A stretch of 64,000 nt of DNA from Crambe crambe (Eukaryota; Porifera; Demospongiae; Poecilosclerida; Crambeidae): assembly GCA_963924555.1 (NCBI GenBank), contig OZ004582.1, positions 9,395,927 to 9,459,926 on the forward strand, written 5' to 3'. The notes under the pieces are model-generated. The model was not told the DNA's origin and made no database searches. It was given only the letters and a program-made list of their open reading frames with translations. The position numbers were made by a program, and so were the translations under genes. Below, piece after piece: positions 6,952-47,462 of this stretch (the stretch's first letter is position 1; each line of letters opens with the position of its first letter).

Positions 6952-9546
6952 ATGAGGACTCTTCCATCAGTAGTTGTGGTTTTAACTACTCTGATCACCA
7001 TATCCTTCACTAAAGTTGTGAGGTACTGTCTAGCTAGTTGATAACCAGTTAGCTATCAAAGTTAAGTAACTGCATGCTGTTGCTTTCCCTTGTTCTCCAT
7101 CTGAATAAGAATCCCTCTCCATGGAGCCCCCCCTGGAAGGAGTGAGGAGTATGGGTCTCAGTGGAGGCTAGCCAGTGATGGACAGCATGCTGCCAGCCTC
7201 ACTAAACGCCACAGTGTCAGTTCAGTACATAGCTAGTGTTATTTTTGCATCGTGTAATGTAACCATAGCAGATTATAGTTGATAACTCTCCACTCATTAT
7301 ATGATACCAAACAGTGGGCAAAATTTGAAAGATAATTATGTATATCCTCCAACTTTGAGCTCAGAAGTCTCAGTACTTTCAGAATTGTTTGGAATTAGCT
7401 ACTCTGTCATTTGGAATTACCCCACTTTAGCTACCCGAAGTGCTAGCTATACTTTTAAGTTTAGCTTATAATATCTCAGCAGAGGAAATTTGCTTCCTTG
7501 CCATTCAATATTATACTTAAGTCATAAACTAGCTTCCAAGTGGTACTTATAATAGCAGCTATGTTTCAATTATGCAAGGCCAGGAACTGAGTACAGCTAG
7601 TAACTATTGAATAGAGTATTTGCATGAATCTTTTAAACTATGGTCACCATTGATTCGTATACAATGGTCATTGCAAATGCTCTATTCATAGCTTGATACA
7701 AGATTTCTTTCTTTGTCTTTTTCAATGCACAGGTTCAGTACTACACCCACATAGGGATTGGAAGTCCTCCACAAACATTTAAGGTTGTGGTACATACTGC
7801 TGGTCCTGAACTGTGGATCCAATCAAAAAAATGTCATGTCTTACCATGTTGTAAGTGTATTATATCAGCTGTATTCCTTTCCACATTGACACTAATTGTT
7901 TATGTTCAGTTTCTCACCAGAGGTATGACCATGAGATTTCCAGCACCTTTGAACCCACCGATAAAGAATTCCTGATTCAAAATCCATCGGGTTTCAACAT
8001 CTCGGGATTCATAAGTATGGACACAGTCACAGTAAGTAGAGAACAAACACAGCTACTACTTCTGTTGCCATAACAATTAACTAAGGACATTTATATTCAA
8101 TGCACTTAATAACTAGTAGCTATACAAAGCCTACAAGTTGAAAGATTTCTGCCATTTTTTATTGTATCAGATTGCTGGTCTGAAGGTGCAAGATCAGAAC
8201 ACAGGAGAAGCTACTAATTTGACCACTGAGTTTTTTCTCTCGACAGAATGGGACGGGATGTTGGGTTTATCTGGGCCATCTCCAAACGGAGGGTTGAGTC
8301 CTCTCTTCTTCAACATGATCTCCCAAGGCGTGGTCACCCAGCCCACTTTCAGCCTCTATTTGAACAAGTAAAATGATTACCAGCCCAACTTTTCAGCCTC
8401 TATTTAAACTATTCAAACAAAATGTGCACAAGATGACCACTTGGAACATTACTACAACTTGAAACATCCAGCATAATGTGACACTTTTGCTGTAGCTAAA
8501 CTTATAAAAGATTGGCAGCATAGCTAATCACTTTTGAGTACTTTAATCAGTTACATAACAGATTGGCAGTTTTTCGGCATGATTCCTTGCCTAGCTATGA
8601 TTAGATTGTTTTTAGCTAATGCTTTTTTTCTAGTAAAAAAGGTGCACCCGCAGGGGAACTGATATTTGGAGCATCTGACCCCACTCTATACAAAGGACCT
8701 CTGAAGTACGTCGATTTGGTGGAATTACAAAACAGCTTCTTTTGGATTGTCCTCATTCAAGGGTGAGTTGAGATGAAATGGGATGGTGAGATTAAGCTTA
8801 ACTCTAGCTATAAAGGTCAATAGTTTAGTATATGAACTATTGAAAGAAGATGTTGTGTGTACACAGTATGACTGTCTTCATTCCTTCCATGCAGTATCAA
8901 GATTGGTGAATCAACGTTATGCAGTAAAGGTTGTCCCATCATGATTGACTCGGCTAATCCTGCCATTAATGGTCCCATTAATGAAATCCAGAAGATCAAC
9001 AACCACTTGCATGGAAGTCAAACTAATGATGGAGTAAGTGTCTTAATAATAAACATCGTAGTTGTAGGCTTAAGGCTTATAGGTCTGCTTCTCTCCTTCT
9101 TACGAAGCCCCCAAAGACTGTATTGTATGTCCATCTTGTTCTTGACTGCAGTATATAGTCTCCTGTGAGGACATTAACACTTTCCCCACCATCACCTTGA
9201 CGATGGGTGGTCACTACTTCAGCCTTTCTCCAGAGGAATATATCATCAAGGTGAGAAAAAGTGGAATTCTATAGTGACTGCTAGCAATGCTGGTTACATT
9301 GCTTCAGTTTATGGACTCTCTATACTTGACAGTAGCTAGCAAGCAAAAGAAACTGCCTTTCTGTTGTTAATCTATACATCCATTTCTCTGCAGGATGCCA
9401 ATCCAGAAGGCAAGGTCACATGCAGATCAGGTTTTGAGGGATTTGGTGATGCGAATGTGTGGTTTCTTGGCGATATCTTCCTCCAAGCCTACTACACTGA
9501 ATTTGATGTGGGAAAGAAGCGAGTGGGGTTCGCACACTCCATCTGA
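6952..9546 (+). CDS. Pepsin/cathepsin D-like pseudoprotease A
   Basis: Nine exons: 6952-7022, 7110-7224, 7733-7850, 7910-8031, 8171-8367, 8634-8762, 8895-9033, 9152-9250, 9394-9546; 380 residues, normal for the family. A hydrophobic signal peptide ([18 protein letters not shown]) and a propeptide beginning RIPLHG are present. The fold is recognisable ([29 protein letters not shown]), but the first catalytic Asp-Thr-Gly is His-Thr-Ala (residue 83) and the second is Asp-Ser-Ala (269). The flap reads NPSGFNISG, lacks the flap Tyr and has an N-glycosylation sequon. The protein is probably secreted or lysosomal and catalytically dead; a role in binding or inhibition is only a guess. Its tandem copy is gene B. 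Confidence 0.88.
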
Positions 9547-9675
9547 GACTGAAATGAACTGTATAATTAGCTATACATAACTTCAAATATCTTGAAATTT
9601 AGTCAATCTTTTTTTTGTGTTTCATAATAAAAATGATTATGGATCAGTGTGGCTGTACACCTAGCTTGCTTGCTG

Positions 9676-9957: not shown

Positions 9958-10240
9958 TGAGTGTGTGACTTGGGAGGGAGACAAAGTGGGCAGATAATGA
10001 GGTAAGGAGACCGAGTAGGGGTGAGGGAGGGAGACCAAGTGGGTTGATAATGAGGTGAGGAGACCAAGTGGGATAATGGATGTGGGTAGGTAATGAGGTG
10101 AGGAGACCAAAATTGGGTACATATGAGTGACCAAGTGGGTAGGTAATGAGGTAAGGTGTACACATGGGTGAGGGAGGGAGGGAGACCAGGTAACAAGGGA
10201 GGGAGACCAGGTAACAAGGGAGAGAGACCAAGTGGGGATG
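9958..10240. repeat. Minisatellite at the left edge of copy B
   Basis: Same unit family as 2697-3215 (gaccaagtgggtaggtaatg). It runs directly into the 3' end of the TRIM-NHL pseudogene, where it replaces the final NHL residues. Confidence 0.85.
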
Positions 10241-12384
10241 ACATACATCACTCCACTGTCATCCACTGCCATACCACAAGGAAATTCAAACTCTCCTGGA
10301 CCTACCCCCTCTTCACCAAATGATAACATGAATCGACCCTTGGAGGTGAACATGGAAACACGACAATCACCATTCTCGCTGACATACACAACATCACTAC
10401 TGTTAATAGCAATACTCAAAGGATAGTTGAGTTCCCCCTTACCACTACCAAATTTCCCTAACATCCTCAAAAACATCCCATCTAGTCTCATGTACCCAAA
10501 CCCGATTCTTTCCTTTTTCTTGGGGGTATCGGGTCTGGCTACGCGAGACTACATCCCATCAGCTGTGAAGAGTTGGATACGATGGTTATCAGCATCAACA
10601 ACATACACATTTCCAGTGCTGTCACAGGCTATGCCATGTATGCCAACAAACTGACCACGGCCACTGCCTTTCCTCCCAAAGGAGTTGGAAAATGTAAGGT
10701 CAGAGTTCAGAACTTGAACATGAAAATTATTTTCCTCTGTGACATATATCTTGTTATTGGTAGCATTGAATACAATGTACAAAGGGCAATAGAACTGCAG
10801 AGGTCCTTTACCTTGAGTACCCACTGCACAGAGGAACTGAACCACTTGCTGTGAATTTCTGTATGCGATGATTGCCAGTATCTGCCACAAGGATATTGCT
10901 CTCACCATCCACTGCCACTCCTCAAGGTGTGTTGAACCGTCCATAATCAGAGCCATAAGAGCCAAATGATTGAAGCTTCTTACCACTGGGACTAAACACT
11001 GAGACATGATCACTCTCTGTAACCACCACCTCCCCCTTCTGGTTGACTACCACTCCCATTGGTTCAACCACATCAATTGTCAGGATAGGAGTGCCTAGCT
11101 TCTCAACTGGTAATTTCACCCTTATACTAAATGGACTTCCTCTGATGTGTACTTTGATGTGTAGCTGGTGCTTCCCCTTGATGGTGGGGCAGTAACTGAT
11201 CTCGTATCGGTTCTGTCCTTTGTGTTCAACATTGCCTCTCTCAGTGGCACCTGTTATCAAAGACACAAGCTCACACTGCAACGAACTGATTGACTTCACA
11301 CATGACTTGCCCTCAAAGTTAACAGCTCGCACGACAGCAGTAGTCTTCTTTCCAACCACTGCTTCTTCCAAACCCTTACCTGTGGCATGGCATTTCGATG
11401 GATCAGGTGACCCTATTGAGAATATTTGTCCATAGTTCTGACACTCGGCAATCAGATCTTGAAAAACTGAAAACTTCATGTCAGCTTCTTCACTAGGCTC
11501 AAGTACACCTGGTTGGAAAGGTGAGGTCAGTTCCTTCACTTGGTTCACAATATTCGTCTTCATCATCAACATTTCTCCCTGATTGCTCGTTTTCAAACTT
11601 TCCCCAACAAAGTCCAGACAGCTGCTCAGCTGTGCCAGGATGGTCTCCATCTGGTCACTCTGGATGGCAAGGTCTTTCAATTTTCTTTGGGTCATTTCAT
11701 GTAGCTGGCTGATAAGCTCGGTCTTCCTAACATCAAGGGTTTCGTGGAGTCGCCTGGTGGTGTCATGTATGTTGGCTTCAATGGCTACTCGGTGGTCGGA
11801 TATCTCCCCACAATGCTTATCCAACTGTGCCAGTGCTTCCTTGACAGCCACCAGTTTCCCTCCAGTGGCTTGAGTGATGGTGCAATTTTTCCGTTGTACC
11901 TCTCGAATGCCTCGTCCAACAAATAATGATCGTGAGTTTGATGCTTGCCTCCTTTAATTGCACATTTTATACAGATCAGGTCACCACACGTCTCACAGTA
12001 AAGCTCTCGTTCTTTGTCTGTGTGTTCAAAACAGTTAGCAATGACCTTCCTTGGAGGTTTAGGGTGTGTCACGACGCTCTTTGCCCCCTCCAGACTGGCT
12101 GATGTATCTTTAGCCTTCTTGTGCTCCTCCAAGATCTCCAACAAGGGGTTGACTTGAAATGCCGACTGGAGACCTGCCACTCCATTGGCTGGAACAGGTG
12201 TTGCCTGATGACAGGTTGGGCAAGTCAGGATGAGTTGTCCCTGCTGGTCTCTGACCACAAGTTTAACAAGGCATTTCCTGCAGTAGATATGGAAGCACTG
12301 GAGAAGCTTAGGGTCAGTATAGGTGTCCAGACAGATGGCACAATTCAGCTGTTCTTCAAGTTTCTTGATGGTATTTTCAGCCAT
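10236..12384 (-). pseudogene. TRIM-NHL pseudogene (copy B)
   Basis: High similarity to the 704-residue gene at 3376-5490 across RING, B-box, coiled coil, filamin and NHL regions, but broken several times. The start and the first zinc-binding domains are intact (12384 downward). A 1-nt deletion in a C run near 11858 shifts frame after the B-box. A Trp codon has become TGA at 10922-10924 in the first NHL repeat. A 1-nt insertion near 10840 shifts frame again. A 69-bp inverted-repeat element interrupts the ORF at 10483-10551. The 3' end is replaced by minisatellite. Translation from the original start would give about 170 TRIM residues, a RING plus B-box fragment, then a short out-of-frame tail. 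Sequencing errors could explain single indels but not the insertion. Confidence 0.9.
10483..10551. mobile_element. 69-bp inverted-repeat element in the NHL region
   Basis: Ends TAGTCTCATGTACCCAAACC and, on the other strand, TAGTCTCGCGTAGCCAGACC; about 20 of the first 24 bases pair. It is flanked by a 9-bp direct repeat, catcccatc (10474-10482 and 10552-10560). The undisrupted copy A has one similar site (cttcccatc), so this is a clean insertion with target duplication. It is too short to encode anything. Confidence 0.75.
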
Positions 12385-12595
12385 TACATAAGCTTGAAAT
12401 TTTTCAGGGCTACTTTGTGTAAGATCTATATGAGAGCCTTATTCGGTGAATATGTAGGTTGTGAATAATGATAATGATTAGTGATTAGTAGCTATAATGC
12501 ATTCATGAATAAACACCATACAGCTGTCAGAATGGTGACTCCTGGTCCCTGGAAAGGGACATAACTGGTGCTCCATAGCTCCCCGCAGTCTGAAG

Positions 12596-12683
12596 GGAGA
12601 CCAAGTGGGGTGCATATGAGTGAGGGAGGAGAGATAATGGGGTTAGGAGACCAACAAGTGGGGTATACAGGGAGACCAAAATT
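12596..12683. repeat. Minisatellite fragment in copy B
   Basis: Short run of gaccaagtggggt-type units just upstream of P2X exon 6', matching 5890-5985. Confidence 0.7.
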
Positions 12684-14111: not shown

Positions 14112-16882
14112 ATGAGGACTCTTCTATCAGTACTTGTGGTTTTAACTCTGATCACCATATCCTTCACTAAAGTTGTGAGGTACTGTCTAGCTAGTTGATG
14201 ACCAGTTAGCTATCAAAGTTAAGTAACTGCATGCTGTTGCTTTCCCTTCTCCAAGAATCCCTCTCCACGGAGTTCCCCCTGGAAGGAATGAGGAGAGAGG
14301 ATCTCAGTGGAGGCTAGCCAGTGATGGACAGCATGCTGCCAGCCTCACTAAACGCTACAGTGTCAGTTTAGTACATAGCTAGTGTTATTTTTGCATGGTG
14401 TAATGTAACTATAGCAGATTATAGTTGATAACTCTCCACTTATTATATGATACCAAACAGTGGTTAAGACTCTGTTTGAAAGATATATTCCATCCTCATT
14501 GTATATCCTCCAACTTTGAGCTCAGAAGTCTCAGTACTTTCAGAATTGTTTGGAATTACTCTGCCATTTGGAATTACCCCGCTTTAGCTACCCGAAGTGC
14601 TAGCTATACTTTTAAGTTTAGCTTATAATATCTCAGCAGAGGAAATTTGCTTCCTCGCCACTCAATATTATACTTAAGTCATGAACTAGCTTCCAAATGG
14701 TAGCTACTCATAATAGGAGCTATGTTTCAATTATGCAAGGCCAGGAACTGAGTACAGCTAGTAACTATTGGATACATAGGTGTAGGAAGATGTTTTAGAC
14801 TTGGGGGGGGGGGGGGGGGGGGGCACATAGGGATGGTAACTGAAATACGAATTGAATTTGAATTATAATAATTATTGTCAAGAGCCAGTGGACAATCACC
14901 TAGCATGGTGCCCCCTCTGCCCCCTGACCATAATCAGGGGGGGGGGCACGTGCCCCCAGTGCCCCCCTGCTTCCTTCGCCTATGGAATAGAGTATTTGCA
15001 TAAATCTTTTAAACTATGGTCACCATTGATTCGTATACAATGTCATTGCAAATGCTCTATTCATAGCTTGATACAAGATTTCTTTCTTTTGTCCTTTTCA
15101 ATGCACAGGTTCAGTACTACACCCACATAGGGATTGGAAGTCCTCCACAAACATTTAAGGTTGTGGTACATACTGCTGGTCCTGAACTGTGGGTCCAGTC
15201 AAAAAAATGTCATGTCTTACCATGTTGTAAGTGTATTTTATATTCCTTTCCACATTAACATTTTTTTGTCCAGTTTTTCACCAGACGTATGACCATGAGA
15301 TTTCCAGCACCTTTGAACCCACCGATAAAGAATTCCTGATTCAAAATCCAGTGGGTTTCAACGTCTCAGGATTCATAAGTATGGACACAGTCACAGTAAG
15401 TAGAGAACAAACACAGCTGCTACTTCTGTTGCCATAACAGACAATGTATACAAAGCCTACAAGTTAAAAGATTTCTGCCATTTTTTTATTGTCCAGATTG
15501 CAGGTCTGAAAGTGCAAGATCAGAATATAGGAGAAGCCACTAATTTGACCACTAAGTATTTTCTCTCGAAAGAATGGGACGGGATGTTGGGTTTATCTAG
15601 GCCATCTCCAAATGGAGGGTTGAGTCCTCTCTTCTTCAACATGATCTCCCAAGGCGTGGTCACCCAGCCCACTTTCAGCCTCTATTTAAACAAGTAAAAT
15701 GATTACCAGCCCACTCTATTTAAACAAAATGTGCACAAGATGACCACTTGGATCGTTACTACAACTTGAAACATCCAGTATAATGTGACACTTTTGCTGT
15801 AGCTAAACTTATAAGCACTTTTGAGTACTTTAATCAGTTACATAACAGATTGGCAGTTTTTCGGCATGATTCCTTGCCTAGCTATGATTAGATTATTTTT
15901 AGCTAATAAATTTTTTTTCTAGTAAAAAAGGTGCACCCACAGGGGAACTGATATTTGGAGCATCTGACCCCACTCTATACAAAGGACCTCTGAAGTACGT
16001 CGATTTGGTGGAATTACAAAAAAGCTTCTTTTGGATTGTCCTCATTCAAGGGTGAGTTGAGATGAAATGGGATGGTGAGATTAAGCTTAACTCTAGCTAT
16101 AGCTAAAGGTCAATAGTTTAGCATTAGCTATGAACTATTAATTGAAAGAAGATATTGTATGAGTATACACAGTATGACTGTCTCCATTCCTTTTATGCAG
16201 TATCAAGATTGGTGAGTCAACAGTATGCAGTAAAGGTGGTCCCATCATAATTGACTCGGCTAATCCTACCATTAATGGTCCCATTAATGAAATCCAGAAG
16301 ATCAACAACCACTTGCATGGAAGTCAAACTAACAATGGGGTAAGTGTCTTAATAATAGAACATCGTAGCTATAGGCTTAAGGCTTATAGGTCAGTCTCAC
16401 CTGCTTCTCTCCTTCTTACGAAGCCCCCAAGCTGAGATCACGATACAAAAGACCTTATTGTATGTCCATCTTGTTCTTGACTGCAGTATATTATAGTCTC
16501 CTGTAAGGACATTAACACTTTCCCCACCATCACCTTGATGATGGGTGGTCACCACTTCAGCCTTTCTCCAGAGGAATATATCATCAAGGTGAGAGAAAGT
16601 GGAATTCTATAGTGACTGCATCAATATGGCTAGCAATACTGGCTACATTGCTTCAGTTCATGGGCTCTCTATACTTGATAATACCTAGGAAAAGAAACTG
16701 CCTTTCTGTTGTTATTCATTTCTCTGCAGGACACTAATCCAGAAGGCAAGGTCACATGCAAATCAGGTTTTGTGGGATTTGGTGATATGAATGTGTGGTT
16801 TCTTGGCGATATCTTCCTCCAAGCCTACTACACTGAATTTGATGTGGGAAAGAAGCGAGTGGGGTTTGCACACTCCGTCTGA
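14112..16882 (+). CDS. Pepsin/cathepsin D-like pseudoprotease B
   Basis: Nine exons: 14112-14179, 14256-14370, 15109-15226, 15274-15395, 15497-15693, 15923-16051, 16201-16339, 16487-16588, 16730-16882; 380 residues. It is the tandem duplicate of gene A with a signal peptide ([17 protein letters not shown]), propeptide and two-lobed fold. Active-site motifs are dead in the same way: His-Thr-Ala (residue 82) and Asp-Ser-Ala (268). The flap is NPVGFNVSG with a sequon. In addition, the second cysteine of the loop before the second site (Cys in A) is Gly, which should break a disulphide conserved in the family. Exon 8 begins one codon earlier than in A. The open frame despite these changes suggests the protein is still made. 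Confidence 0.86.
14771..14984. mobile_element. 214-bp G-rich inverted-repeat insertion in gene B intron 2
   Basis: Absent from gene A, where gtaactattg continues straight into gaatagag. The insert begins (after gata) CATAGGTGTAGGAAG and ends CTTCCTTCGCCTATG, which pair at 13 of 15 positions, flanked by a likely 5-bp target duplication (ggata/gaata). Inside are long G and C runs. A relative is at 34309-34454. Confidence 0.75.
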
Positions 16883-17381: not shown

Positions 17382-18136
17382 TTAGCTATTGACAGAGGTC
17401 TTTGAGTGAGCAATTCCAATCCTCTTATTCCCCATATCGAACTCAACATAGTGGGACTTGAAAAATGGATCCCCAAAGTTCCAGAATTTCATATCTCCAA
17501 TTTCAACAAAAGCAGATAGACAGATACTAAAGCCAAGAGCAGGAAATGACTCCTGAGGGAGAAAAAAGTATGTCAGACAGTTGTTCTCTCTTGAAAGAGG
17601 ATAAAATTGGTACTAGGTTAACATAGAGGTCATTAAGAGTGTCTCAAAATGCTACCTGGAGATCATCCCTTACCTTTATGATGTATTCGTCTGGAGTGAG
17701 GCTGAACTGGTTGTCACCAAATGAGAAGGTGATGGTTGAGAGCGAAGGAACGTTATCACAAGGAACCACATGCTGAATAAAAATGATTTCGAGGGTTAAC
17801 TTTGCAGCTAGCTGTATACCTGTCAGTGTGACTGGTAGCTACGTGAATCAATGCACTAAAATTACTCACCACGCCTCCAGATTCAAAGCCCCCCATGTTC
17901 TTATTGATTTGCCTGATGATGTTGGTGGGTCCATTGATGACTCCGTTGCCTGTGTCGATCATGACGGAGCCGCAATCTCCATCACAGTAAGATGTGTTAC
18001 CCATGCCAAAACTAGATTATGAGACAGTAGTAAGACTTGGGGGGAGGGGGGGGGGGGGGGGGGTGAGCACATTTTAAATAAAGTTATGTACATTATTGAT
18101 TATAGGCATAGCAAAGTCTTGTTTTTTGTTGTTGTT

Positions 18137-18224
<88 letters not shown>

Positions 18225-19851
18225 GAATCAAGAAGTGGCCCTGTAGCTAGCTGAGCAGCCACAGCCTTACATACCTCTGCATTGGAATGGTCCAGAGATA
18301 CTGGCTTTCCACTAGATTAGTGTACTTGAGTGAGCCAATGTACGAGGTGGGGTCAGATCCTCCCAGTATTAACTCTCCATACAATAGATCCCTATTATAA
18401 AGGTAGTCATAATAGTTAGCTACATAGCTATAGCTCCAGGTAAATCTATAAGGATTGTAGATGCAATGAAACCTCCAAATAATTTATTTAGGACCAATCA
18501 TTGCAGCGATGATAATGCATTCTTAACCTCTCTAGCTATATAAAGGACAATGGACGAAATATTTGGTCCCAGGCACTATTGGAACATAAACAAGTGGTCT
18601 TTAAAGAGAGGTGGTCTCTGAGTGGTCTCTTAATGGAGGTTTCACTTATGATCTGGGGATTGTAGACCTGCTAGCTACATATATGCATTATGTAGCTACC
18701 TATCTGTGTAGTAGCTGAAAACGGGACGAGAGACCAAGCCCTGAGAGATCATGTTGTAAAAGAGAGGAACCAGTCCGTCTTGAGGAGGCCCTCCCATCCC
18801 CAAAATGGCGTCCCAATCGTAGTTCATAATAACCGCCCCTGTGACGGACACGCCCTCTAGAAAACGCTGATTTTGTACTGCCACATCACCAATCTGCCAC
18901 GACAACAAACAGGGTGTCTAGCTTCATACATCTAGTTATTGCTGTGATTGAACACAGTATTTGAATTTCAGCTAGGGAGTCACATTGGGAGAGGTATTAA
19001 AGGAGGGGGGTGGGATTCACATTAAGGGAGGGACACAATAATGCACATAGAGCACTGTTGATCACTCACAGTAACTGTATCCACACTCATGGGTCCTGAG
19101 ACATTGGCACCTTGAGGATATTCTAGGAACATATAATCTTCTGTGGCCTTGAAGGTGCTGGATTGTTCACGATCGTATTTAAATGACTGACGTTTTGCTA
19201 CATAATTAGAGAAATTAATGATCATGCAGCTCATTTTGGCGAGACCATGCACTAGCTTGCTAGCTATTCTTATTGAACTTACTGCACCCCCTGGAACGAC
19301 ACATCACTGAGGGGACCCAAAGTTCACTGCCCCCTGTATTTATAACGAGCCTGGAAAATTGTGGAGGAGTTCCAAACCCAAGCATTGTATAATATCGACT
19401 GTCCTGGATCATACGGAGGAAATGAATCAAATGATAATTACAATTACAACTTAAAGGTCTCACTAGCTATGATGACCATTGCCATTCATCACTATATAGC
19501 TAACCTTAGCTAGATGTTGGATAATGTAGCTAGCTATTTTACTAGCTTACAGATTGGAATTTGACGAGAGGAATCGATGTGTGTTCCGACTGGATCTCTC
19601 CTGTTGCAGCACTGCGTAATGAATCCACATGATCTCTTGAAGGAGCAGCTCGATGGAGGGGGAGTCTGCATGGCAGACAGACAGACAGACAGAGAGAGAG
19701 CAGAGATAAAATAAGAGCAAATTAGATACTGTAACTTATACTGCCATGTAGTCACAAAAGCATGACAGCTAGCTAGCTACCTGACAACTGCAGCAAGTGA
19801 GGGAACAAGAAGAGTCAATGAGAGAACCAGTAGTGCTGCAATAACCTGCAT
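17382..19851 (-). CDS. Pepsin/cathepsin D-like pseudoprotease C
   Basis: Nine exons, in coding order 19781-19851, 19551-19665, 19283-19403, 19070-19197, 18700-18893, 18275-18391, 17870-18011, 17674-17772, 17382-17552; 385 residues. The signal peptide is MQVIAALLVLSLTLLVPSLA. The first catalytic motif is Asn-Thr-Gly (residue 84) in LVINTGGSELWVPS; the second is intact Asp-Thr-Gly (268) but in an unusual DTGNGVINGP context. The flap is LEYPQGANVSGP: the Tyr is kept but the Gly-Ser-Gly turn is replaced and a sequon added. Asp to Asn at this site is the substitution used experimentally to kill pepsins, so activity is very unlikely. The gene is a head-to-tail neighbour of D, its closest relative. 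Confidence 0.87.
18038..18063. repeat. Poly-G tract
   Basis: gacttggggggaggggg followed by a long G run in an intron of gene C; it resembles the interior of the 14771-14984 element. Confidence 0.8.
18126..18222. repeat. (GTT)n microsatellite
   Basis: About 30 GTT units in gene C intron 6, between exon 6 and exon 7. The minus strand reads as polyglutamine, but this is intronic. Confidence 0.95.
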
Positions 19852-23681: not shown

Positions 23682-23722
<41 letters not shown>

Positions 23723-32542: not shown

Positions 32543-35367
32543 TTACATAAAGTGAGCAATCCCAACACGTTCCTTCTCCACATCGTACTCTGTGTAGAAG
32601 CCTTTAAGAAAGATATCTCCCAAATACCATGTGTTCTCATTGCCAAAACCTTGGAAACCAGAGATACAAACAGTCTCTCCTTTAGAATCGACTTCCTGAA
32701 GAAAGAAAGAGTAAGTGGGTGACCAGCTCTATATAATGGGTGACCAGCTAGCTAACATGGTCTTATTTCACTGTGAATTGGTTTAGACAACCACTACCAC
32801 TTCTGCTGGGTACAAGATTCACTCCTCGCATTCATACCTTGATGATGTAATTCTGCGGAAAAACCGGAAAGTCATACTCTCCAAAGGTGAAAGTGACGAC
32901 AGGTGAAACACCGATGTAGTTACAGGGAAGGGTGAACTACAATCATAATGAAAATCAAATGGTCAAATTTCAGTAAAAATACTGAATTGAATGAGTATGA
33001 TTGGAGGCTCTAAGCTAACTAGCTAGCCATATACAGGGCAATGGTGAATCCAAAGGTAGACAATATATACTATGAAGAGTTAGCTTGCTCATAATTGAGA
33101 ATGGGATTGAACTGTACCACTTGTCCTGATATGCGAGTGCCTCCAAGTCTTTTGTTTATCAGTTCAATTTCCTCTATGGGACCATTGATGTAGGGGTTGG
33201 CAGTTCCCATCACAGCTGAACAACCGAAGGCACAGAAAGTATATCCATCCATTGTTACACTGTGGAAGTAGATAAGTTATTAATGGAGAAGTGTATTAGC
33301 TAGAGGAAATATTATCATCATATTAAATGACATGGATCTTATACCAATAACTATTGATACGAGAACTCAAACATCCCAAAAATAAAGTGTGTAGATACCC
33401 TTCTACTATTAATGCTCACCTCCGCATTGCTATGGTCCAGTAGTAGGCACTATCCTTCAACCTGTCGAAGTATCTCGGAGTGCTGACATAACGTTCAGGG
33501 TCTGAGCCTCCCAGTATCAACTCTCCTTCACCAGAATCACTAAAATTAATTAAGGAACATGGAAAAGTTAACTAGCTAGCTACACTTGCAAGCTACCCAA
33601 GGTGGAAGCTGAAGATAGGCTGAGAAACGACCCCCTGGGAGACCATGTTATGAAAGAGAGGGTTGATACCATTGGATGGCCCTCCTAATCCCAGAATTCC
33701 ATCCCACTTGGCATCAAGGAACGGTTGTGTGCCCTCTTTAATTGTCTCTCCGAAAATCTGATCTCTCACTGTCAGACCAGCAATCTGTAAGAGAGAACAG
33801 TCATTATAATGCTATACCAGATGCCATAGCAACACAGACTATGGCTACTAATTATATTATATAGCTGTTTCTTTGGTATTTAGCACACCAAGGGGTCATT
33901 GGCCTATCATGCAGCTTAGCATTTATCAACCTATCAACCTCAAATGCAGCAATCCTATTGGTTGAATTTTATAACCATGTTAGAAGAACAAAACAAGTTT
34001 TAGCTATGTATACAATGATTTGAGTCAGCAGCAGCGTAGTTGAAAGCTCTAGCTACAACTCACTGTAACTGTGTCCTGGCTCATGATTCCGGCAAAGGTG
34101 TTCCCTAAAGCATCTGTGGTGGAGAACTGCTTGTTTGTGGACTTGTAGGTACTGGAGACATCGTGATTGTACCTGTTGTGTGAATCTGCACAGAAGCATA
34201 TGATATAACAACACAAAATGCACAAAATATAAAAGTGCATTGATTGACCATTGAAACAAGGTAATCTGGCTCCGAGATCAAGATATTGCACTCAGTATAT
34301 ACACCCATCATAAGCGTAGGAACCAGGGGGGCAAGGGGGACTGTTATCCCCCTGAAATTACATTTTTATTAATGAAGATAAGTATAAATACCTATAGCTA
34401 TATAGTCTTATGAAATTGTCCACCTAACCAAAATCATCTTCCTATACTTATGCCCATGGTTGCATCTATAATGTTATTGAGTTATGAAATCCAGTTGATT
34501 AGCTACTCACAGCATGGCAAACTCTGACATTGGACTGATGGGACCAAGAGCATGTTGCTGGCTGTGTGAATAAGGACTTTGAAGGTCTGCGGAGGTGTTC
34601 CAATAGATATTTCTCCATAGTAACGAGCCTAGAAGGTCAAAGTTGAAACATGGCTGAATCAAAATGAATGACACTATTGAGATAGAAAATGAATGCTCTG
34701 CTGTATAGCCAACATAATACAGAGGTGAATAGGTTTTGTATGACCATTATAGCTATGGAGTCAAACAGGTAGCTATTATAGACAATGTGAATTAATAGAA
34801 GTGTCTCAATTATCATGAAGGTAGCTAGCTAACTTAGACACTGTCAGAGTATTCACACATTATGCTGATGTGCTTTAACTGAATACCTGCACTTTTAGTT
34901 AACAGCAAGGGAAGATCATACATATTCCCTCAGCCTCTGCACTTTTAGTTAATGCAAAATTACTTAACATGGAGGGAAGACACTAGCAGTCACCATTAAA
35001 TAAACTAAACACACTTGCATCATTCTCATATTTACAGCAGTCTGTACTGAATAAGCTTTAATGCACCATTCTTAATTATGGGTTTACTTACATCTTGAAA
35101 TTTAGTGATATTTAGGACTCTGACTTTGCCATGTTTCTCTTGTAGTTTATCTGCAGCATTGGCTAATGTGTACTTTTGGAGTCCTAGATCCAAATCCTGT
35201 CCAGATGGGAGCTGATGGAGAGGAACTCTGAGAAAGATAATCAAAGAAAGAAAGTACCTACTTAGCTATTACTGTAAAAAGCTATAGGCCACCTTTTAGA
35301 CCTACCTTACTACCCTAGCAGATGATATTGCTAGCAGAGCTGATAAGAATACGACAGTCGCCTGCAT
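32543..35367 (-). CDS. Pepsin/cathepsin D-like pseudoprotease H
   Basis: Nine exons, in coding order 35306-35367, 35092-35227, 34511-34628, 34064-34185, 33597-33784, 33420-33539, 33118-33259, 32838-32936, 32543-32695; 379 residues. The signal peptide is [17 protein letters not shown] and the propeptide starts [11 protein letters not shown]. The first motif is His-Thr-Ala (residue 87) in [14 protein letters not shown]; the second is Gly-Thr-Ala (267, [13 protein letters not shown]). Both catalytic Asp residues are gone, the most complete loss in the array. The flap [13 protein letters not shown] has neither the flap Tyr nor a sequon, unlike the other dead members. The body ([21 protein letters not shown]) stays family-like. 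Confidence 0.86.
34309..34454. mobile_element. G-rich inverted-repeat element in gene H intron 3
   Basis: Left end CATAAGCGTAGGAA, right end TTCCTATACTTATG, pairing at 12 of 14 positions, with ggggggcaaggggga and tatccccct inside. It resembles the 14771-14984 insertion. Confidence 0.6.
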
Positions 35368-35564: not shown

Positions 35565-37810
35565 TCATGAAAATGACTTGGAGTTGGCAAATCCTACATG
35601 TTTCTCTCCCATGTCAAATTCAGCATAGTAAGCTTTGAAGAAGATATCTCCTATCACCCATGATGAAGTTGAAGTGGAATTTCTTTCTTGGAAACCTGAT
35701 ACACAGGAGATATCGCCAGCAGAATCTTTTCTCTGGAGAGGGATGAAATAGAAATTGGAAAATTGTCAGTGTGCAAAGATAATTAGCTATGAGGTGACAT
35801 TTTTCTGGGTTTTTCTGAATCCCATAAAGCTATTGTTTAGTTACCTTGGTGATGTATTGCTCTGGCATGAGAGGAAAGTCATAGCCACCCATTGTTAAGG
35901 TAATGACAGGAAGTGTATCGATGGAAGCACAGGAAATCTCGTACTATGATGTACATGTATTAATGAAATCAAATTTTTTTTGACTGGATTATACTATTCA
36001 CTTACTTCTAAGTTTTGTCCAATTTTTCTACCCCCAAGCTTTTTATTTATCTCTTCTACTTCTTCAGTGGGACCAGATATCAAAGAGTTGCCCACATGTA
36101 TCATGGTAGAACATCCACCATTGCAATAAGTGGAGTCTCCCACAGCAATACTGAAAGAGAAAAAGAAGAGGAATAATATTACTGATATGTGCTACTATAT
36201 TCTCGTTATTAACCTTTGCATGAAAATGACCCAGAACTGGTCATTCAGTAGGTTGATGTACTTGAGTGGACCATTGTAGAGCTTGGGATCAGATCCTCCA
36301 AGAATCAGCTGTCCTTCAAATGAAGAACTCTCATTTCTAGTGAGGGATAAGTACAGAGCTAGCTATATCACAAGATACAGTCGCACCACTTCAGCTATAA
36401 ATGTAGCTTCGTTCACAGGATTAACTTAAAGGAGACCCCTAGCCAACTAGGTAGCTACGGTGAAACCACTGACTAGGACACTTTACAGTCTAAATAAGGA
36501 TGACTTCTACATAAAGGATATGCACTTGTTGAGGACCAATCATTATAGCTAATCGCAAGGCCGTAGACAAAAAAGATAATTTGGGGGGGCTTGAGATGGA
36601 GAAAAGTTTTACTAATGACATTAAATAAACACTAAATAAACATCAGTTACTTATTGGCTATGAGTAAGTAATGATATGATATCATCCCTGAAAATTTGGG
36701 GGGGCTGGAGCCCCCCCCCCCCCCCCAATCCCCCCCTTGCCTACGGCCTTGTAATGATTTAACTTCTCTATAAAGGATGCCTCTCTAACTTGCTATTTTG
36801 TAGCTATTACAGTGATCCATTCTGAGCTTGATTGGGGATTTATTTCAATATGATACAGACTATGTCTGTAAGTTACCTGTTCAAATAGAGACTGAAAATT
36901 GGCTGGGAGACCAATTTCTGGGAGATCATGCTGAGGAAGACAGGTATTAGTTCTCCATCAGACCCACCCAGTCCCAGCACCCCGTCCCACTCGTAATGAA
37001 TGAATGGACGATTGGGCATGAAGACAGTCTGTCCAAAAATTTGATACACCACCTCCAGGCCAGCTACCTGCAATGATAAAATATTATGGGTCCCTATTGT
37101 GTGGAGGTTTTAATGTAATTTTTAAACTTGCTATTCACCCTAACAGTGTCGAAGGTTAAGAACATTGTAATATTGAATCCTTGTGGATATTGAATATTAA
37201 GTTGCTCGAATGTGTAGTCAGCAGTGGAAGAGTCCATCAGAATATAGCCAGTATGCAGATCTGTAATTTTATAAAGTTCGTGCTACAGTATTGCAGCATA
37301 AAATAATACGACACTCACAGCAAGTTAAGGTTGGACATTGTGTGGAAGGGACCCACAGGAGAGGCGAGGCTGTATCAATGGCAACTTTGAAGCTTTGAGG
37401 TGGTGTTCCAATGTATATCGTCCCATAGTATCGCAACTGCATGGACAATTGGAATGAATACCAGAGAATATATTATTTCGATTCCAAATATCATGTCATT
37501 AAGTTTCTAATAATAACTCACACTGCGATGTTTAGTTAAGTTTAAAACACTATAGGCTGTGTTGGGACTGTTCAGACCAATTCCAGACTTCTCTTCAGCC
37601 TCATTGTAGGCTGGCCCATATTCCTTGATGCCATTTTGTGGCAGTGACTCAAAGAGAGGGACTCTAATGAGAAGAAACTTCTTCAAATTAGCTAGCTATA
37701 GTTTGTACTCAGCTAACTACCTAGTAGTTAGATGTCTACCTTGCAACTTTGGATGATGAAATGGCAACCAGAGCTGAAGATACCAGAAGAAATGTGGCAA
37801 AGATTTGCAT
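35565..37810 (-). CDS. Pepsin/cathepsin D-like pseudoprotease I
   Basis: Nine exons, in coding order 37740-37810, 37522-37663, 37319-37436, 37139-37260, 36877-37067, 36214-36336, 36006-36150, 35845-35943, 35565-35732; 392 residues. The signal peptide is [20 protein letters not shown]. The first motif is Asp-Thr-Ala (residue 92, [13 protein letters not shown]): the Asp is kept but Gly replaced. The second is His-Val-Gly (274, [12 protein letters not shown]), so its catalytic Asp is lost. The flap is [12 protein letters not shown], with a Tyr and an N-I-T sequon. It is the only dead member whose first Asp survives while the second is lost. A palindromic tgcacatgtgca lies at 37884-37895 upstream. 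Confidence 0.86.
36450..36830. mobile_element. Nested elements in gene I intron 5
   Basis: An outer MITE-like element (ggtgaaaccactgactagga ... ctctataaaggatgcctctc) is interrupted by a G-rich element of about 190 bp with ends aaggccgtagacaa and, inverted, ttgcctacggcctt, and internal runs of G and C. The insertion sits between ctaatcgc and gtaatgat. Confidence 0.5.
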
Positions 37811-37994: not shown

Positions 37995-40749
37995 TCATGA
38001 GAACTTTGAATGAGCAAATCCAATTCTTTTTCTTCCAACATCATACTCAGAATAGTAAGCACCAAGGAACACATCCCCCAAGATCCACTTGTCTTGCCCA
38101 ACAACTCCTTGGAAACCACTCAGACAGGTGATCCCTCCATCATGGCGTTTTTCCTATGTGGCATAAAAGATCATGATAGAGACCATTAATAAGACACATG
38201 CTGCTAGCTAGCTATGACCCTGTGCAGTTACCTTGACAATGTATTCCTCTGGGGTGAGGATGAAATCGTGTCCTCCTATTGTGAAGGTGATGCTGGGCAT
38301 CTGACGTATGGATTCACAGGAAACCAAATGCTATGATCATGCAGTGAAAGAGAGAGTGGAACACAATTAATGAGTAGAGTGCTTGATCACTGTGTTATTT
38401 CTGGGTTGGGGGGGTACATTACTCTAGCTACATGAAATATAATGGTTCACACTTCAAATACTACAGACTCTTCCACAATCCATTATTATAAGGTAGCTAG
38501 TTCTGGACACATGCACTCACAACTGGTCCTGTAAGAGTGCCTCCAATTTTCAAGTTTATTTTCTCCATATCACCAAACGGACCGATGATGAGGCTCGTGC
38601 CAGTGTCAATGATGGCAGAACAACCGCCAATGCAATACTTGGAGTCACCTATCGTAACACTGAAAGAGAGGGAAGGCAAAGAAAAGGGTGTGGTGTGAAC
38701 TTGTTAGATTTTGATCTGTGTTGCCTCACCTTTGCATCGCAACTATCCACCATGCTTCTTCCAGAATATTGACATACTTCAGTGGACCCTTGTAATACTT
38801 AGGGTCAGACCCTCCAAAGATTACTTCTCCTCCAAAAGTGCTACTCAGCTTTCTATAAAGTGTGTAGAACTATATATTACTTAGAGAGTGAAGAAGAACC
38901 TACACCGAAACATCATAGTAAATTCAACTGATTCGAGGGAGGGAGGGGAAGTATTTCAGGGTACGAAAAAGATTTATGGGTTTAGTGGTTTAGCCACTTC
39001 ACACTTCACAAAAATATTTGTGTCATTTGGAGTATGGAGCCAGAGATGTAGCTATGACTGCATACCGGTTCAAGTAGAAGCTGAATATAGGCTGTGAAAC
39101 AACGCCCTGGAGCACCATGTTCTGAAAGACAGGATTGATTCCACCACTGAGGGAAGGCCAAGCCATGCCAAGGATCCCATCCCACTTGGCATTGAGGAAG
39201 GGAGTTTTACTTTCATGCGTGGACTCTCCAAAGATTTGGTCTATCACTTCCAGACCGGCAACCTAATCAAGAAATAGAGTGGAACCTTTGATAAGTAACC
39301 TCCAAAAGAGGACAACCTCTCTACTTTTGTACTAAAGATTATCTGCACCCACAGAAAATCTGCAACAATCTTATAATTGCCATGTAGCTAATTGGGCTGG
39401 TTTCTTCTAGCTAAGCCTATGGTGTTCCTTGTGCAGTCTCTGGGCCTCTGGCACCTTGCTTGCTGTCTAGGCTTGCTGCAGTGTTTTGTCTCCTTGCTTA
39501 TTGTATTTTTCGCTGGTCTAGGCATGGGACTGCTAGGACAGATTTGATTGGAATTGTATAGCTAACATGCTGGATTTAGCTACTCACAATGACTGTGTCC
39601 TTGCTGAGAGAGCCAGAGGTACTTCCTGTTCCATATTTGATATGGTATATGAATATGGTTGGCTTGTACGTGCTGGATCTGTTGTGATCATAAGTCTTGT
39701 GGAGAACTAAAGGAGTTGAAGGGAAACAAATTACACCCCCAACCTGTTCTCCCTCATCACAGTTTTACTATAAAATTTTTAGTATCTTTATTACAGTGGA
39801 AGCTCTGATAAAGGACACTCTGAAAGAGGACAAACCTCTCAACAAAGGATGAACTCTTATATATACACTCTATAACCGATAGCTAACCCTCTTCAAAGGA
39901 TAAAAGGCTGGGTCCCAAGTGTGTCCATTATTCTGAGGTTCCACTGTACTCACGGCAGCTGAGTTCCACACACGAGACTGAGGGGACCCAGAGATTGGAG
40001 GACCCTGTGTCAAAGAGAACCTTGAAGGTCTTAGGTGGTGTACCAATGGATATCAATCCATAATAGTCGGTCTGTAAGGAGTAATGATTCCATAGGGTGC
40101 ATAATTCTAAGAGGATGTATTTTGTAGCAGTTTCAATAACAAGTTTAGTTATCTGCAGTTCAGCTATTGTATAGCCAGTACTGCTATGTTAAATGTCTTA
40201 GGTAGCTAGCTTATATGAATACTCACATTCAGGAATCAGGTAGAGAGAATACCACCAGCTATCATGCAAGTAATTATTAAGTTTTAGACTGTGGACTAGC
40301 GAACTATGAATGAGTAGGCTCAAATAACATAGCTAGCTGCTGCTACTATAATTATGGAGTAAATCTCTTCTCAGATGTCCAATTATTTGAAGCTATTATT
40401 GTATTTTGGCCACATTAATTTTGGTAATTATCAATATCTGACATTCTGGCGGTTGGTGAGGTTCAGGGCAACATCAGGATGTCTTTTTCCAGGTATTGCC
40501 TCCTCCTCAGCCAAAGAGTGCAGTGCATATTTTTGGAGCGGATCTAGGTCCTTTTGAGGTGGGAATTGATAAAGTGGAATCCTAAATAAGTAGGAAGAGG
40601 GAGGACTATGAATATTATAATTATCTACCTAGCTAGCTAAATATGGTTGCAAACTTAATAGTGCTTTACCTCACAATTTTAGTGAAAGATAAGGTGATAA
40701 GACAAGGAAGGACGACTAGTAGCGCTGTAGTGTTCGACATCTTGGCCAT
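37995..40749 (-). CDS. Cathepsin D/pepsin-like aspartic protease J (active site intact)
   Basis: Nine exons, in coding order 40670-40749, 40443-40581, 39954-40071, 39588-39706, 39066-39262, 38730-38852, 38521-38659, 38232-38330, 37995-38153; 390 residues. A signal peptide ([21 protein letters not shown]; a second Met at codon 4 is possible) is followed by a propeptide starting [10 protein letters not shown]. Both catalytic motifs are canonical: Asp94 in [13 protein letters not shown] and Asp277 in [12 protein letters not shown]. The flap is [10 protein letters not shown] with the Tyr. It should be an acid endopeptidase of the A1 family, lysosomal or secreted. The exon 2 donor is the weaker GTCAGA. 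Its body ([22 protein letters not shown]) is the active relative closest to H and I. Confidence 0.9.
39792..39948. mobile_element. MITE with CAGTGGAA termini in gene J intron 3
   Basis: 157 bp; left tacagtggaagctctgataa, right ttattctgaggttccactgta, good inverted repeats bounded by TA. It is the clearest copy of this family in the window. Confidence 0.75.
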
Positions 40750-40978: not shown

Positions 40979-44491
<3,513 letters not shown>

Positions 44492-44730: not shown

Positions 44731-47462
44731 TTAAACAGCAGGGGCAAAGCCCAGACGTTTATTTCCCATGTCAAACTCAGTGTAGTAGGTCCCAATGAAG
44801 ACGTCTCCCAGAATCCACAAGGGACCAATCCTGGGGGGCATGGTGATGCCCATGAAACCACTCACACACTGCGTGGTACCAGCAGCACTGACCTGGAGTC
44901 ACATAAGGGTGAGGTGGAGGATGAGTAGTCACATAAGGGTGAACATCAAGGAGTAATCAAGCACTTACTTCAAGGATATAATCTTTCCCTTTGAGAACAT
45001 AGTCCTTTCCACCAAGAGTAAAAGCAATGTCAGGCAGAGAACTAACCTTGCTGCAGTCTATTGTGTACTAAACAAACAAGCAAACAAACAAACAAACAAC
45101 AACAAACTAAAACAACGATTTTTATCCCCCAGTGACCCTTACCTCATTGACTCCAGGAACAAGCTGGGTGGCTCCAAGCTGCTGATTCAGCTTGGAGACT
45201 TGATCGGAGGGTCCAGCAATGAGAGAAGTGCCTGTATCCAGAATAGCATTGCAGCCTGAACAGTATGGAGAAGTAGTGCCACCTATCTTGATCCTGTCCA
45301 AGGAAATAAATATTTTTTCTTAGTGTTTGTATAGTGGAACATCCAAGGAAAGGATCAGCCACTGTCCTTTGTAGGAAGGTTATCCTTTTCTCAGAGGTTA
45401 AAAATGTACTACAGTAGCCCTCCAAGAAGAAGACGATTTCCCAACAAAGGAACTCTTTTGGGCCCCCTTCCCATAGCATTAGTACTTCTTAACCTCTGAG
45501 AAAGGACAACCTCTTTACAAAGGACAAAGTGGCTGATCCCAAAGTGTCCTTCTCTCAGAGGTTGTACTAATGCTATGGGAAAGGAGCGTCCTTTGTTGGG
45601 AGGTTGTCCTCTTCTTGGAGAATACTCACCCGTCCATGTGTAGTTCCCAGTAGGTCTCATTGGAGAGAGGAACATAGTTAAGAGGACCTTGATAATGGGA
45701 AGTGTCGGTACCACCTAGCAGCATTTCACCTCCATTACTATTGTTCAAGTTCCTACAAAAACATAAGGACTGAGTTAAATACAAGATCAAGGTCACAATA
45801 TTTTAATACTGAAAATGGGACCAGAAACCAGTAACTTTGCAGTCATGGCACTGTTATTAGCCAGACACTAACCTGTCGAGCCAGAAACCAAAGACTGGGT
45901 TAGCAACAAGATTCTGGGTGATCATGTTGCCGAAGACAGTAGGAATATGGTTGACTGAGATGGAAGGGAAAGCCATTCCCAAGATGCCATCAAACTTGGC
46001 AGCTATGAAGGCAAGGCCAGGCTGGTGATAAGCCTCGGCAAACAGCTGTCCTTTTACCGTCACATTCCCTATCTGTAATAAAGTAATTAAATTAAAGGAG
46101 CTTACACAAATCGGTGGAACCTCTGAGTAAAGGACTCTCCAAGAAAAGGACAACCTCCTAGCATTTTTAACCTCCGAGAAAAGGACAAACTCTCCACAAA
46201 GGACAAGTGGCTGATTCCACAGTGTCCTTTACTCGGACGTTCCACCTCATTACACCAGAAAGGAGAGGAGATATCTTACTGTGACAGAGTCTTGACTGAT
46301 GATTCCGTCAAGACTTCCAGATCCGTATTGAATGGCAAACTTGGTGCCATTCTTGACAAAAGTGGAGGACTTGGAACTGTCGTACTTGTTGTGGATCTCT
46401 GTAGAATGCAATATTATCATGTGCAAGTACATATAAACACTAAGGAAATTGTAACAGTTGTCCCCTGTCACTGATGTCTCTCACTCAATCCAAACTGCTT
46501 TCATTGCAAATAATCATGGTGGGAAAGACGAAAAGGCTTTCCTATATACTATTAGACTCCAACTGGTTTTCTCTTTCTTTTCTACTCTACTCAACTCACT
46601 GCAAGCAATGTCAAGGATGGCACAGTTCTTGGAAGGGACCCAGAGGTTGGACGAGCCAGTGTCAAACACCACCACAAACTTCTGAGGGGGAGTGCCGATC
46701 GTTATGGGTCCATAGTACTGAGCCTAGAAGAAAAGATAATACAGTGAACCTAAATGTATAGATTTGTGGTATTATCTAATCAAGGTCTTGTTGGTGGCTT
46801 CATAGAAACCTTGATTATTCTCATAGGTAATTCAATACTCCCCACACACACCCCATCATGTGACCTGAACATCACCCCATCCACCATGGAGACAGCAACA
46901 GGTGCTACGTTCAGAGGTCAAAGCCACATAATGAGGATCAGTACCTTATCTCAGTATTATCAACTCGGACCAAAATTAATGATTCCTGCATACGCACACT
47001 CTACATACTTTACTGCCTACAGATATTTAGAATTCCATCAAGCAGTGTTTGTACAAGTTAGTTAACATAACAGCAGTTACAATGTCACATGATCAAAACA
47101 CCTCAGTATTGATAAGATGTGCCCATGTCTATCTCCTAAAGAAGACTCACATCTTGATAGTCTGTGAGTGGTTCAGGGTCATCTCCAAGGTTCCCCCCTC
47201 CAAACTTCTTTTCCACCACCCGCTTGAGCTTGGCCATGTCCCCCAACTTCTTTAGTGGTGGTCCATCTCGTTTTATAGGCACCCTAACAGTAAGTATACC
47301 ATACCATACTACTCAACACATAACGTATTGTGCATTGCTCCAATCACAAGAGCCTGTCTCCAGAAAAAAGCTTCAGCTTTTTTTCGTATCTAGTACTTAC
47401 CTCAGCAAAGCACTTGACAGTGTTACAAATCCAAAGAACAGAATGAGAACTGCTGACTTCAT
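44731..47462 (-). CDS. Cathepsin D-like aspartic protease L (active site intact)
   Basis: Nine exons, in coding order 47401-47462, 47151-47283, 46600-46723, 46280-46398, 45873-46072, 45630-45752, 45143-45293, 44969-45067, 44731-44892; 390 residues. The signal peptide is [18 protein letters not shown] and the propeptide contains [14 protein letters not shown] and LTDYQD segments. Catalytic Asp86 ([16 protein letters not shown]) and Asp273 ([12 protein letters not shown]) are canonical, as is the flap [10 protein letters not shown]. It is the most standard cathepsin D in the window and the likely ancestral type of the array, which is inference. It lies at the end of the array next to NF-YA. Confidence 0.92.
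45326..45620. mobile_element. Palindromic MITE-family cluster in gene L intron 6
   Basis: Contains a long imperfect palindrome: ctccaagaagaagacgattt at the left pairs with the right end (gttgtcctcttcttggag), and gcccccttcccatagcatta pairs with taatgctatgggaaaggag. A second, shorter fragment precedes it (45330-45405). Confidence 0.65.
46108..46250. mobile_element. MITE-family copy in gene L intron 4
   Basis: Starts cggtggaacctctgagtaaa and ends tttactcggacgttccacct, inverted repeats of each other; it shares the ctctccacaaaggacaagtg and tggctgattcc blocks of the family. Confidence 0.65.

What the first reader, a model, noticed from the sequence alone, without database searches (positions are those of the whole stretch)
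6952..47462. Array of twelve aspartic-protease genes, nine catalytically dead by different substitutions
Seen: twelve nine-exon genes with the same intron positions and phases, signal peptides and open frames. J, K and L keep Asp-Thr-Gly at both sites. First/second sites of the rest: A and B HTA/DSA, C NTG/DTG, D GTG/DTG, E RTS/DTG, F NTA/DTG, G STG/DTA, H HTA/GTA, I DTA/HVG. Known: both aspartates are needed for catalysis in the A1 family. Inference: repeated, independent loss of catalysis while the scaffold and splicing stay intact points to a retained non-enzymatic role (binding, inhibition, decoy or structural), as proposed for other pseudoenzymes such as pregnancy-associated glycoproteins. 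I know of no description of such an array in a basal animal.
Basis: partly seen in the sequence, partly recalled or inferred. Interest (0 to 1): 0.9.

Follow-up and report, generated by a model that had tools for sequence, protein, structure and literature searches.

The report
Sponge array of altered aspartic proteases
A marine sponge carries a row of twelve cathepsin D-like genes, nine of which have lost or swapped an amino acid needed for normal cutting yet mostly stay under selection, which points to a family kept for a job other than ordinary protein digestion.

Summary
Observation confirmed. Twelve complete nine-exon A1 genes lie at 6952-47462 (A, B, G on +, the rest on -), 96 of 96 introns GT-AG, no internal stops, motifs as listed. 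The source is very probably the sponge Crambe crambe. Genome searches found two further A1 loci: a thirteenth relative on C19 (NSG/DTG) and a BACE-like gene.

The interpretation needs correcting. The ten altered genes (A-I, C19) form one group near J and K (not strongly supported once catalytic columns are removed); the dyad broke perhaps two to four times, not nine. Nine of ten share a rebuilt flap, Pro76 plus an N-glycosylation sequon seen in 1 of 345 homologues. C-I and C19 are under purifying selection, omega 0.17-0.35. A/B, a recent duplicate, have omega 0.83, not distinguishable from 1, though coding indels are depleted. A/B match the changes of Plasmodium histo-aspartic protease, an active enzyme, so "dead" is unproven there.

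Best reading: a flap-glycosylated A1 pseudoprotease clade kept for cleft binding. Expression and function untested.

The parts
6952..9546 (+). gene A, 9 exons, 377 aa, HTA/DSA, flap NPSG-FNIS
14112..16882 (+). gene B, 9 exons, 377 aa, HTA/DSA, flap NPVG-FNVS; has five of the six conserved Cys
17382..19851 (-). gene C, 9 exons, 385 aa, NTG/DTG, flap YPQG-ANVS
20727..22662 (-). gene D, 9 exons, 389 aa, GTG/DTG, flap YPQG-MMNAS
23242..26001 (-). gene E, 9 exons, 377 aa, RTS/DTG, flap YPQG-VNVS
26354..29634 (-). gene F, 9 exons, 391 aa, NTA/DTG, flap FPQN-FNIS
29818..32124 (+). gene G, 9 exons, 367 aa, STG/DTA, flap YPEG-YNVS; the one + strand gene inside the - strand block C-L
32543..35367 (-). 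gene H, 9 exons, 379 aa, HTA/GTA (both Asp lost), flap DALG, no flap sequon
35565..37810 (-). gene I, 9 exons, 392 aa, DTA/HVG (first Asp kept, second His), flap YPQG-FNIT
37995..40740 (-). gene J, 9 exons, 387 aa, DTG/DTG, flap YGTG; nearest standard-motif relative of the altered group
40979..44491 (-). gene K, 9 exons, 393 aa, DTG/DTG, flap YGTG; exons 1-2 set by hand
44731..47462 (-). gene L, 9 exons, 390 aa, DTG/DTG, flap YGSG; ordinary cathepsin D, 68% identical to database protein P0123
3376..5508 (-). neighbour in the A/B segmental duplication: RING/B-box/filamin/NHL (TRIM-NHL type) open frame, 710 aa, copy 1
10200..12600 (-). region holding copy 2 of that TRIM-NHL frame, 90% identical over 2101 aligned bases, broken by frameshifts: an internal control for decay in the same duplicated block

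Best explanation
A duplicate of a cathepsin D-like gene in this sponge lineage (nearest standard-motif relatives J, then K) gave rise to a clade of ten genes, nine in the array and one on C19, whose active site is no longer the pepsin type. SHOWN from sequence: the altered proteins form one group on the best trees; nine of ten share a rebuilt flap (Gly76 to Pro and an N-x-S/T sequon at the flap tip, with one or two inserted residues, where standard enzymes have Tyr-Gly-Ser/Thr-Gly); the catalytic loops are relaxed compared with the rest of the mature protein, and the six Cys are kept in nine of ten; eight of ten have omega significantly below 1. INFERRED: the proteins enter the secretory or endolysosomal route, fold as two lobes with a cleft, carry a glycan on the flap, and act by binding peptides or other ligands in the cleft without the ordinary two-Asp hydrolysis, as binding or competing partners of the remaining proteases J, K and L or of outside ligands. 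Once two-Asp catalysis was no longer required, the freed Asp positions drifted to different residues, which explains the variety of motifs without nine separate losses.
For: Models and motifs. Grouping, SH-aLRT/UFBoot: A-I one side of a branch 98.6/100; the ten with C19 98.1/100; with catalytic and flap columns removed 82/74. Flap: Pro at position 76 in 9 of 10 altered proteins; in homologues Gly in 219 of 229 and 115 of 116, Pro in 0 of 345; flap sequon in 9 of 10 against 1 of 229 and 0 of 116. Selection: C-D omega 0.347, p 8e-12; tips C-I and C19 omega 0.17-0.35, p 1.2e-3 or less. Loops: 17 near-invariant catalytic-loop columns kept in 3.7 of 10 on average, 95 other mature columns in 6.97 of 10, p 1.8e-4. 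A/B: 2 coding indels, both 3 nt, against 20.2 expected at the intron rate, p 4e-7.
Against: No transcript or protein evidence. A and B have omega 0.83, not different from 1 (tips p 0.21 and 0.88), and their codon positions diverge about as much as their introns. Synonymous change is near saturation on the long tips (neutral-scale lengths 2.3-3.1 for E-I and C19), so those omegas are rough. Without catalytic and flap columns the tool rates the single group 'not shown, not rejected'. H lacks the Pro and the sequon, so the flap motif is not indispensable. Background omega is lower (0.21-0.22) than inside the altered group (0.304; inner branches 0.49), so constraint is relaxed. The C19 gene may be damaged. 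Cleft binding is shown for none, and glycosylation is only a sequon.
Confidence: 0.6

Rival explanations
1. Some members, above all A and B, are not dead but work as histo-aspartic proteases: His at position 32 pairs with Asp215, as in Plasmodium falciparum HAP (plasmepsin III). I would be a mirror image (Asp32/His215).
For: A and B have His for Asp32, Ala for both motif Gly, and Asn for flap Tyr75. [quoted passage not shown] its flap Tyr is not conserved (PMC4987639, passages). HAP chains appear among sequence matches of H.
Against: Pro76 and a flap sequon are not HAP features in the passages I saw; H, also HTA, has lost Asp215; the other altered genes have Asn, Gly, Arg or Ser at 32, for which I recall no active example; H scores 239 bits to a cathepsin D chain and 90 bits to HAP. 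HAP letters were not seen in an alignment here.
Confidence: 0.17
2. Ordinary decaying duplicates: catalysis was lost because the genes are on the way to pseudogenes.
For: A-B omega 0.83, p 0.55; B tip omega 1.09; B has lost a conserved Cys; the C19 gene has an ambiguous exon-7 donor or a one-base shift.
Against: No stop or frameshift in any of the twelve array models, although C-I are far diverged; omega below 1 for C-I and C19; coding indels in A/B few and in frame, p 4e-7, while the TRIM-NHL copy in the same duplication is broken.
Confidence: 0.08
3. A structural or matrix role, by analogy with silicatein, in which sponges turned a cathepsin L relative into a skeleton protein.
For: Silicatein is a cathepsin L homologue in demosponge spicule filaments (PMC10772126, passages); a reference title in the same paper names silica deposition in Crambe crambe.
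Against: Analogy only. I looked at no spicule proteome of this species; the passages on cathepsin in PMC10772126 speak of cathepsin L.
Confidence: 0.1
4. Assembly error or collapsed haplotypes produced the substitutions.
For: None found.
Against: The substitutions sit in complete reading frames at separate loci, most of them under constraint; if the assembly is odCraCram1.1, its quoted quality value is 58.1 (PMC12166358, passages).
Confidence: 0.01

Closest known systems
Pregnancy-associated glycoproteins (PAGs) of ungulates
   Same: Multigene A1 family with active and presumed inactive members that keep the two-lobe fold, with three disulphides in buffalo PAG 7, and reported pepstatin binding (PMC6221303, passages).
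   Different: Nearest relatives here are the sponge genes J and K; shared Pro-sequon flap; no placenta.
Bla g 2 / Per a 2 / Lma-p54 of cockroaches
   Same: Inactive aspartic proteases of unknown or suggested binding function (PMC9541408, passages).
   Different: Common descent was not tested. That their flap is also altered is recalled, from no call.
Plasmodium histo-aspartic protease (HAP, plasmepsin III)
   Same: A and B share His for Asp32, Ala for both motif glycines, and a non-Tyr flap.
   Different: HAP is an active enzyme; A/B activity is unknown, their flap has Pro76 and a sequon. The likeness is taken as convergent because A and B group with the sponge genes; no plasmepsin was in that tree.
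Cathepsin D (family A1)
   Same: J, K and L are standard members by motif and flap; all twelve share intron phases, propeptide start and, B apart, six Cys.
   Different: A-I and C19 lack the two-Asp dyad and the Tyr-Gly-Ser/Thr-Gly flap.

Membership tests
Pepsin/cathepsin D family A1 (Pfam PF00026) | Profile match over the whole mature protein | tested here: met
   Pfam scan of 2 of 12 proteins: A 3.6e-79, C 1.4e-72; PDB cathepsin D matches of L 8.3e-126, H 6.2e-70, A 7.4e-71
Pepsin/cathepsin D family A1 (Pfam PF00026) | Two catalytic Asp in D-T/S-G motifs | tested here: not met
   Met by J, K, L; not met by any of A-I or C19. A-I descend from the family but are not catalytic members by this criterion
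Pepsin/cathepsin D family A1 (Pfam PF00026) | Flap Tyr75-Gly76 | tested here: not met
   Met by J, K, L; Gly76 absent in 10 of 10 altered, Tyr75 absent in A, B, F, H
Pepsin/cathepsin D family A1 (Pfam PF00026) | Six conserved Cys (three disulphide pairs) | tested here: met
   Cys lists: all of A-M except B, which has five (one search shows one Cys column as 6 of 10 because the alignment shifts it in C-F). Pairing is inferred
Pregnancy-associated glycoproteins | Common descent with vertebrate cathepsin E / pepsin-type genes | tested here: not met
   Altered genes group with J and K, apart from P0037 (Xenopus cathepsin E) and P0042 (pepsin A-like); no PAG row itself was in the tree
Pregnancy-associated glycoproteins | Trophoblast expression | not testable with these tools
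   no expression data; not meaningful in a sponge
Histo-aspartic protease (HAP) | His for Asp32, Ala for both motif glycines, non-Tyr flap | tested here: met
   A and B only; HAP features from passages in PMC3134243 and PMC4987639
Histo-aspartic protease (HAP) | Proteolytic activity | not testable with these tools
   needs purified protein
Histo-aspartic protease (HAP) | Common descent with plasmepsins | tested here: inconclusive
   Only scores: H 239 bits to cathepsin D, 90 bits to HAP; no plasmepsin row was placed in a tree
Cockroach Bla g 2-type inactive aspartic proteases | Common descent | not tested
   no Bla g 2 row was placed in a tree

The most novel reading that the evidence does not exclude
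An animal lineage evolved a new A1 subfamily in which the flap is stiffened by Pro76 and capped by a glycan, so the cleft became a binding site, and within it genes A and B independently re-created the histo-aspartic (His32/Asp215, Ala for both Gly) active site known from malaria parasites.
Probability: 0.12. Interest if true: 0.85.

Novelty: new variant of a known kind. Interest (0 to 1): 0.62.

Why it matters
Nine altered and three standard cathepsin D-like genes side by side in one sponge, with one more altered copy elsewhere, make a natural series for asking how a protease becomes a binding protein. The shared Pro-plus-sequon flap gives a concrete, testable step, and the His-containing pairs (A, B, I) test how far the two-Asp rule of this enzyme family can bend. 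The listings of the paper searches aimed at this (lists capped at 12-15 rows, open-licence full text only) showed no description of such an array in a sponge.

Tried and rejected
Nine independent losses: rejected; 2 + 2 steps at the two Asp positions suffice. A single loss of Asp32 with I outside the rest: not rejected (AU p 0.068; the group was named after the tree was seen). On a strict no-regain view of the tree the dyad was broken in up to four lineages (C19; A/B/H; I; C-G), my reading of the tree, and the inner forks are weak.

Omega on the stem of the altered group went to the search bound of 20 and is not used.

Orthologues elsewhere: none seen. The alignment of A-I gave 196 matches and G gave 237, 120 listed each. 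Of the 345 listed proteins whose motifs I counted (229, 116), none lacks an Asp at either aligned site; P0057 has a gap at the second, and P0038, P0067, P0071 and two have odd neighbours of the Asp, not followed up. Of 353 listed proteins, 272 match L best, 80 K and 1 J. The tool sees only relatives that share exact five-residue words, so diverged orthologues may be missed.

Rows dropped: of 237 proteins from the first two searches, 229 of 300-520 aa were used for motif counts. Outgroups for the trees were picked by hand: 20 of 237 and 16 of 237.

Structure prediction of the spliced proteins was not attempted, because the tool asks for proteins given letter for letter by the DNA and these are joined from exons. 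Two short searches meant to show a HAP alignment did not show one: HAP was listed but too low to be printed, it was not listed.
Full report
WHAT IS THERE. Twelve complete genes come out, A, B and G on the + strand and C, D, E, F, H, I, J, K, L on the - strand, each with nine exons, a Met start, a stop codon and no internal stop; 96 of 96 introns are GT-AG and exon start phases agree in all twelve. Runs with different queries disagreed in the weakly conserved exons 1-4, with some ten-exon or frameshifted versions; I chose the open versions by hand, and exons 1-2 of K were placed by hand. Each has a hydrophobic leader, judged by hydropathy only, followed by the conserved propeptide start. There is no transcript evidence.

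WHERE IT COMES FROM. The window lies in a 143,139,886-base assembly of 119 contigs. Contigs C3, C14 and C19 are 9,683,886, 7,327,377 and 6,535,638 bases. The genome note for the sponge Crambe crambe (PMC12166358, abstract and passages) gives 143.20 Mb in 124 scaffolds with chromosome 2 at 9.68, chromosome 11 at 7.33 and chromosome 16 at 6.54 Mb. I take the source to be that assembly; totals differ slightly, so this is very probable, not proven. Gene L also groups with a clade that holds the sponge Halisarca dujardinii (P0208), with moderate to weak support.

HOW MANY IN THE GENOME. A whole-genome search with the A1 profile gave 50 matching stretches, in this array, on C19 or on C14; searches with D and L gave matches in the array and on C19 only. 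The tool scores only the best candidates, so this is a lower bound. The C19 gene is a thirteenth relative with NSG/DTG and the flap YPHG-YNFS; its exon 7 needs either a weak donor or a one-base shift, so it may be damaged. The C14 gene has VDTGSS and VDSGTT and looks BACE-like (the name is recalled).

ONE ORIGIN, NOT NINE. With catalytic columns included the altered genes stand together, J being the nearest standard gene and K next (SH-aLRT/UFBoot): 98.6/100 for A-I, 98.1/100 for the ten with C19. With catalytic and flap columns taken out the ten are still one side of a branch, at 82/74, which the tool rates as neither shown nor rejected. Counting changes on that tree gives two at the first Asp and two at the second. 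I keeps the first Asp and has His at the second; H lacks both. A single first-site loss with I outside is not rejected (AU p 0.068). A, B and H share His-Thr-Ala; A and B are copies within one ~7-kb duplication.

A SHARED REBUILT FLAP. Standard enzymes read Tyr-Gly-Ser/Thr-Gly. Nine of ten altered proteins have Pro at the Gly76 place and an N-x-S/T sequon whose Asn lies four residues further on, five in D, with one or two residues inserted; H has the insertion but neither Pro nor sequon. Among 229 homologues one has a sequon there and none has Pro; among 116 further homologues none has either. The ordinary cathepsin D sequon before the flap, present in L and in 144 of 229 homologues, is absent from A-K. 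A glycan at the flap tip would lie near the mouth of the cleft; that is inference from the pepsin fold.

SELECTION. Pairwise codon models: C-D omega 0.347, dS 0.57, p 8e-12; E-G 0.137; F-D 0.266; H-A 0.197; I-C19 0.281. Tip by tip, C, D, E, F, G, H, I and C19 have omega 0.17-0.35 and reject 1 at p 1.2e-3 or less; A (0.33, p 0.21) and B (1.09, p 0.88) do not. All branches inside the altered group together have omega 0.304 against 0.21 for the background, and 1 is rejected with a likelihood ratio of 490 (printed before one search hit its time limit); inner branches of the group have 0.49 in the tip model. So constraint is real but looser than in the standard genes. Long tips are near synonymous saturation, so C-D is the cleanest case: two genes without the first Asp, clearly constrained. 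C-D identity is uneven between exons, so gene conversion may blur that estimate.

A AND B. Their divergence at the three codon positions (4.8, 3.7, 5.6%) is close to that of their introns (5.4%); omega is 0.83, p 0.55. Yet there are only two coding indels, both of 3 bases, against 20.2 expected from the 24 intron indels, p 4e-7; the absence of stops alone is not significant (1.87 expected, p 0.15). In the same duplicated block the second copy of a TRIM-NHL frame is broken by frameshifts. So A and B keep their frames while their residues change nearly freely, or change under mixed relaxed and positive selection, which I did not separate.

WHAT IS KEPT. Of near-invariant columns of standard enzymes, 17 in the catalytic loops are kept by 3.7 of 10 altered proteins on average, and 95 others in the mature part by 6.97, p 1.8e-4. 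The six Cys are complete in nine of ten, B having five. The Thr of the first motif is kept in 9 and that of the second in 7 of 10.

HOW IT MIGHT WORK. I commit to cleft binding without ordinary two-Asp hydrolysis, with a flap that is stiffened and probably glycosylated. The sequence steps are shown; folding, glycosylation, location and binding are inferred. The main rival is that A and B are histo-aspartic proteases: HAP of Plasmodium has His for the first Asp, Ala for both glycines and no conserved flap Tyr, and is listed as active (PMC3134243 and PMC4987639, passages). A and B match all three.

WHAT IS KNOWN. PAGs of ungulates and cockroach Bla g 2 are the nearest known kinds (PMC6221303 and PMC9541408, passages); neither was placed in my trees. 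The listings of paper searches aimed at this showed no such array.

VERDICT. Observation confirmed; interpretation partly supported. A new variant of a known kind: a tandem A1 clade, so far seen in one genome, with a shared new flap, mostly under constraint, function unproven.

Noticed in passing
3376-5508 and 10200-12600: A RING/B-box/filamin/NHL open frame (TRIM-NHL type) was duplicated together with A/B; the second copy carries frameshifts while the A1 copies stay intact.
   Followed up: yes
13564-14064: A tandem repeat array with a period of about 90 bases (8 overlapping members of a 105-nt family) just upstream of gene B.
   Followed up: no
2712-3215 and 10016-10204: Purine-rich direct repeats at the edge of the A/B duplication, possible breakpoints.
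   Followed up: no
50057-51208: Open frame with a FYVE zinc-finger match, two stretches.
   Followed up: no
52522-53778 (-): Open frame with a partial forkhead domain.
   Followed up: no
51387-52169: Open frame with a sub-threshold match (20 bits, cut-off 22.3) to the Pfam Zeta_toxin profile; probably an ordinary kinase-type fold.
   Followed up: no
L002 (G000:C14:885000-894000): A distant A1 gene with VDTGSS and VDSGTT motifs, BACE-like, the only A1 match of the genome search outside the cathepsin D group.
   Followed up: partly
C (17382-19851) versus D (20727-22662): Exon identity between C and D is uneven (0.91 in exon 8, 0.62 in exon 2, introns 0.38-0.68), which may reflect gene conversion as well as constraint.
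   Followed up: no
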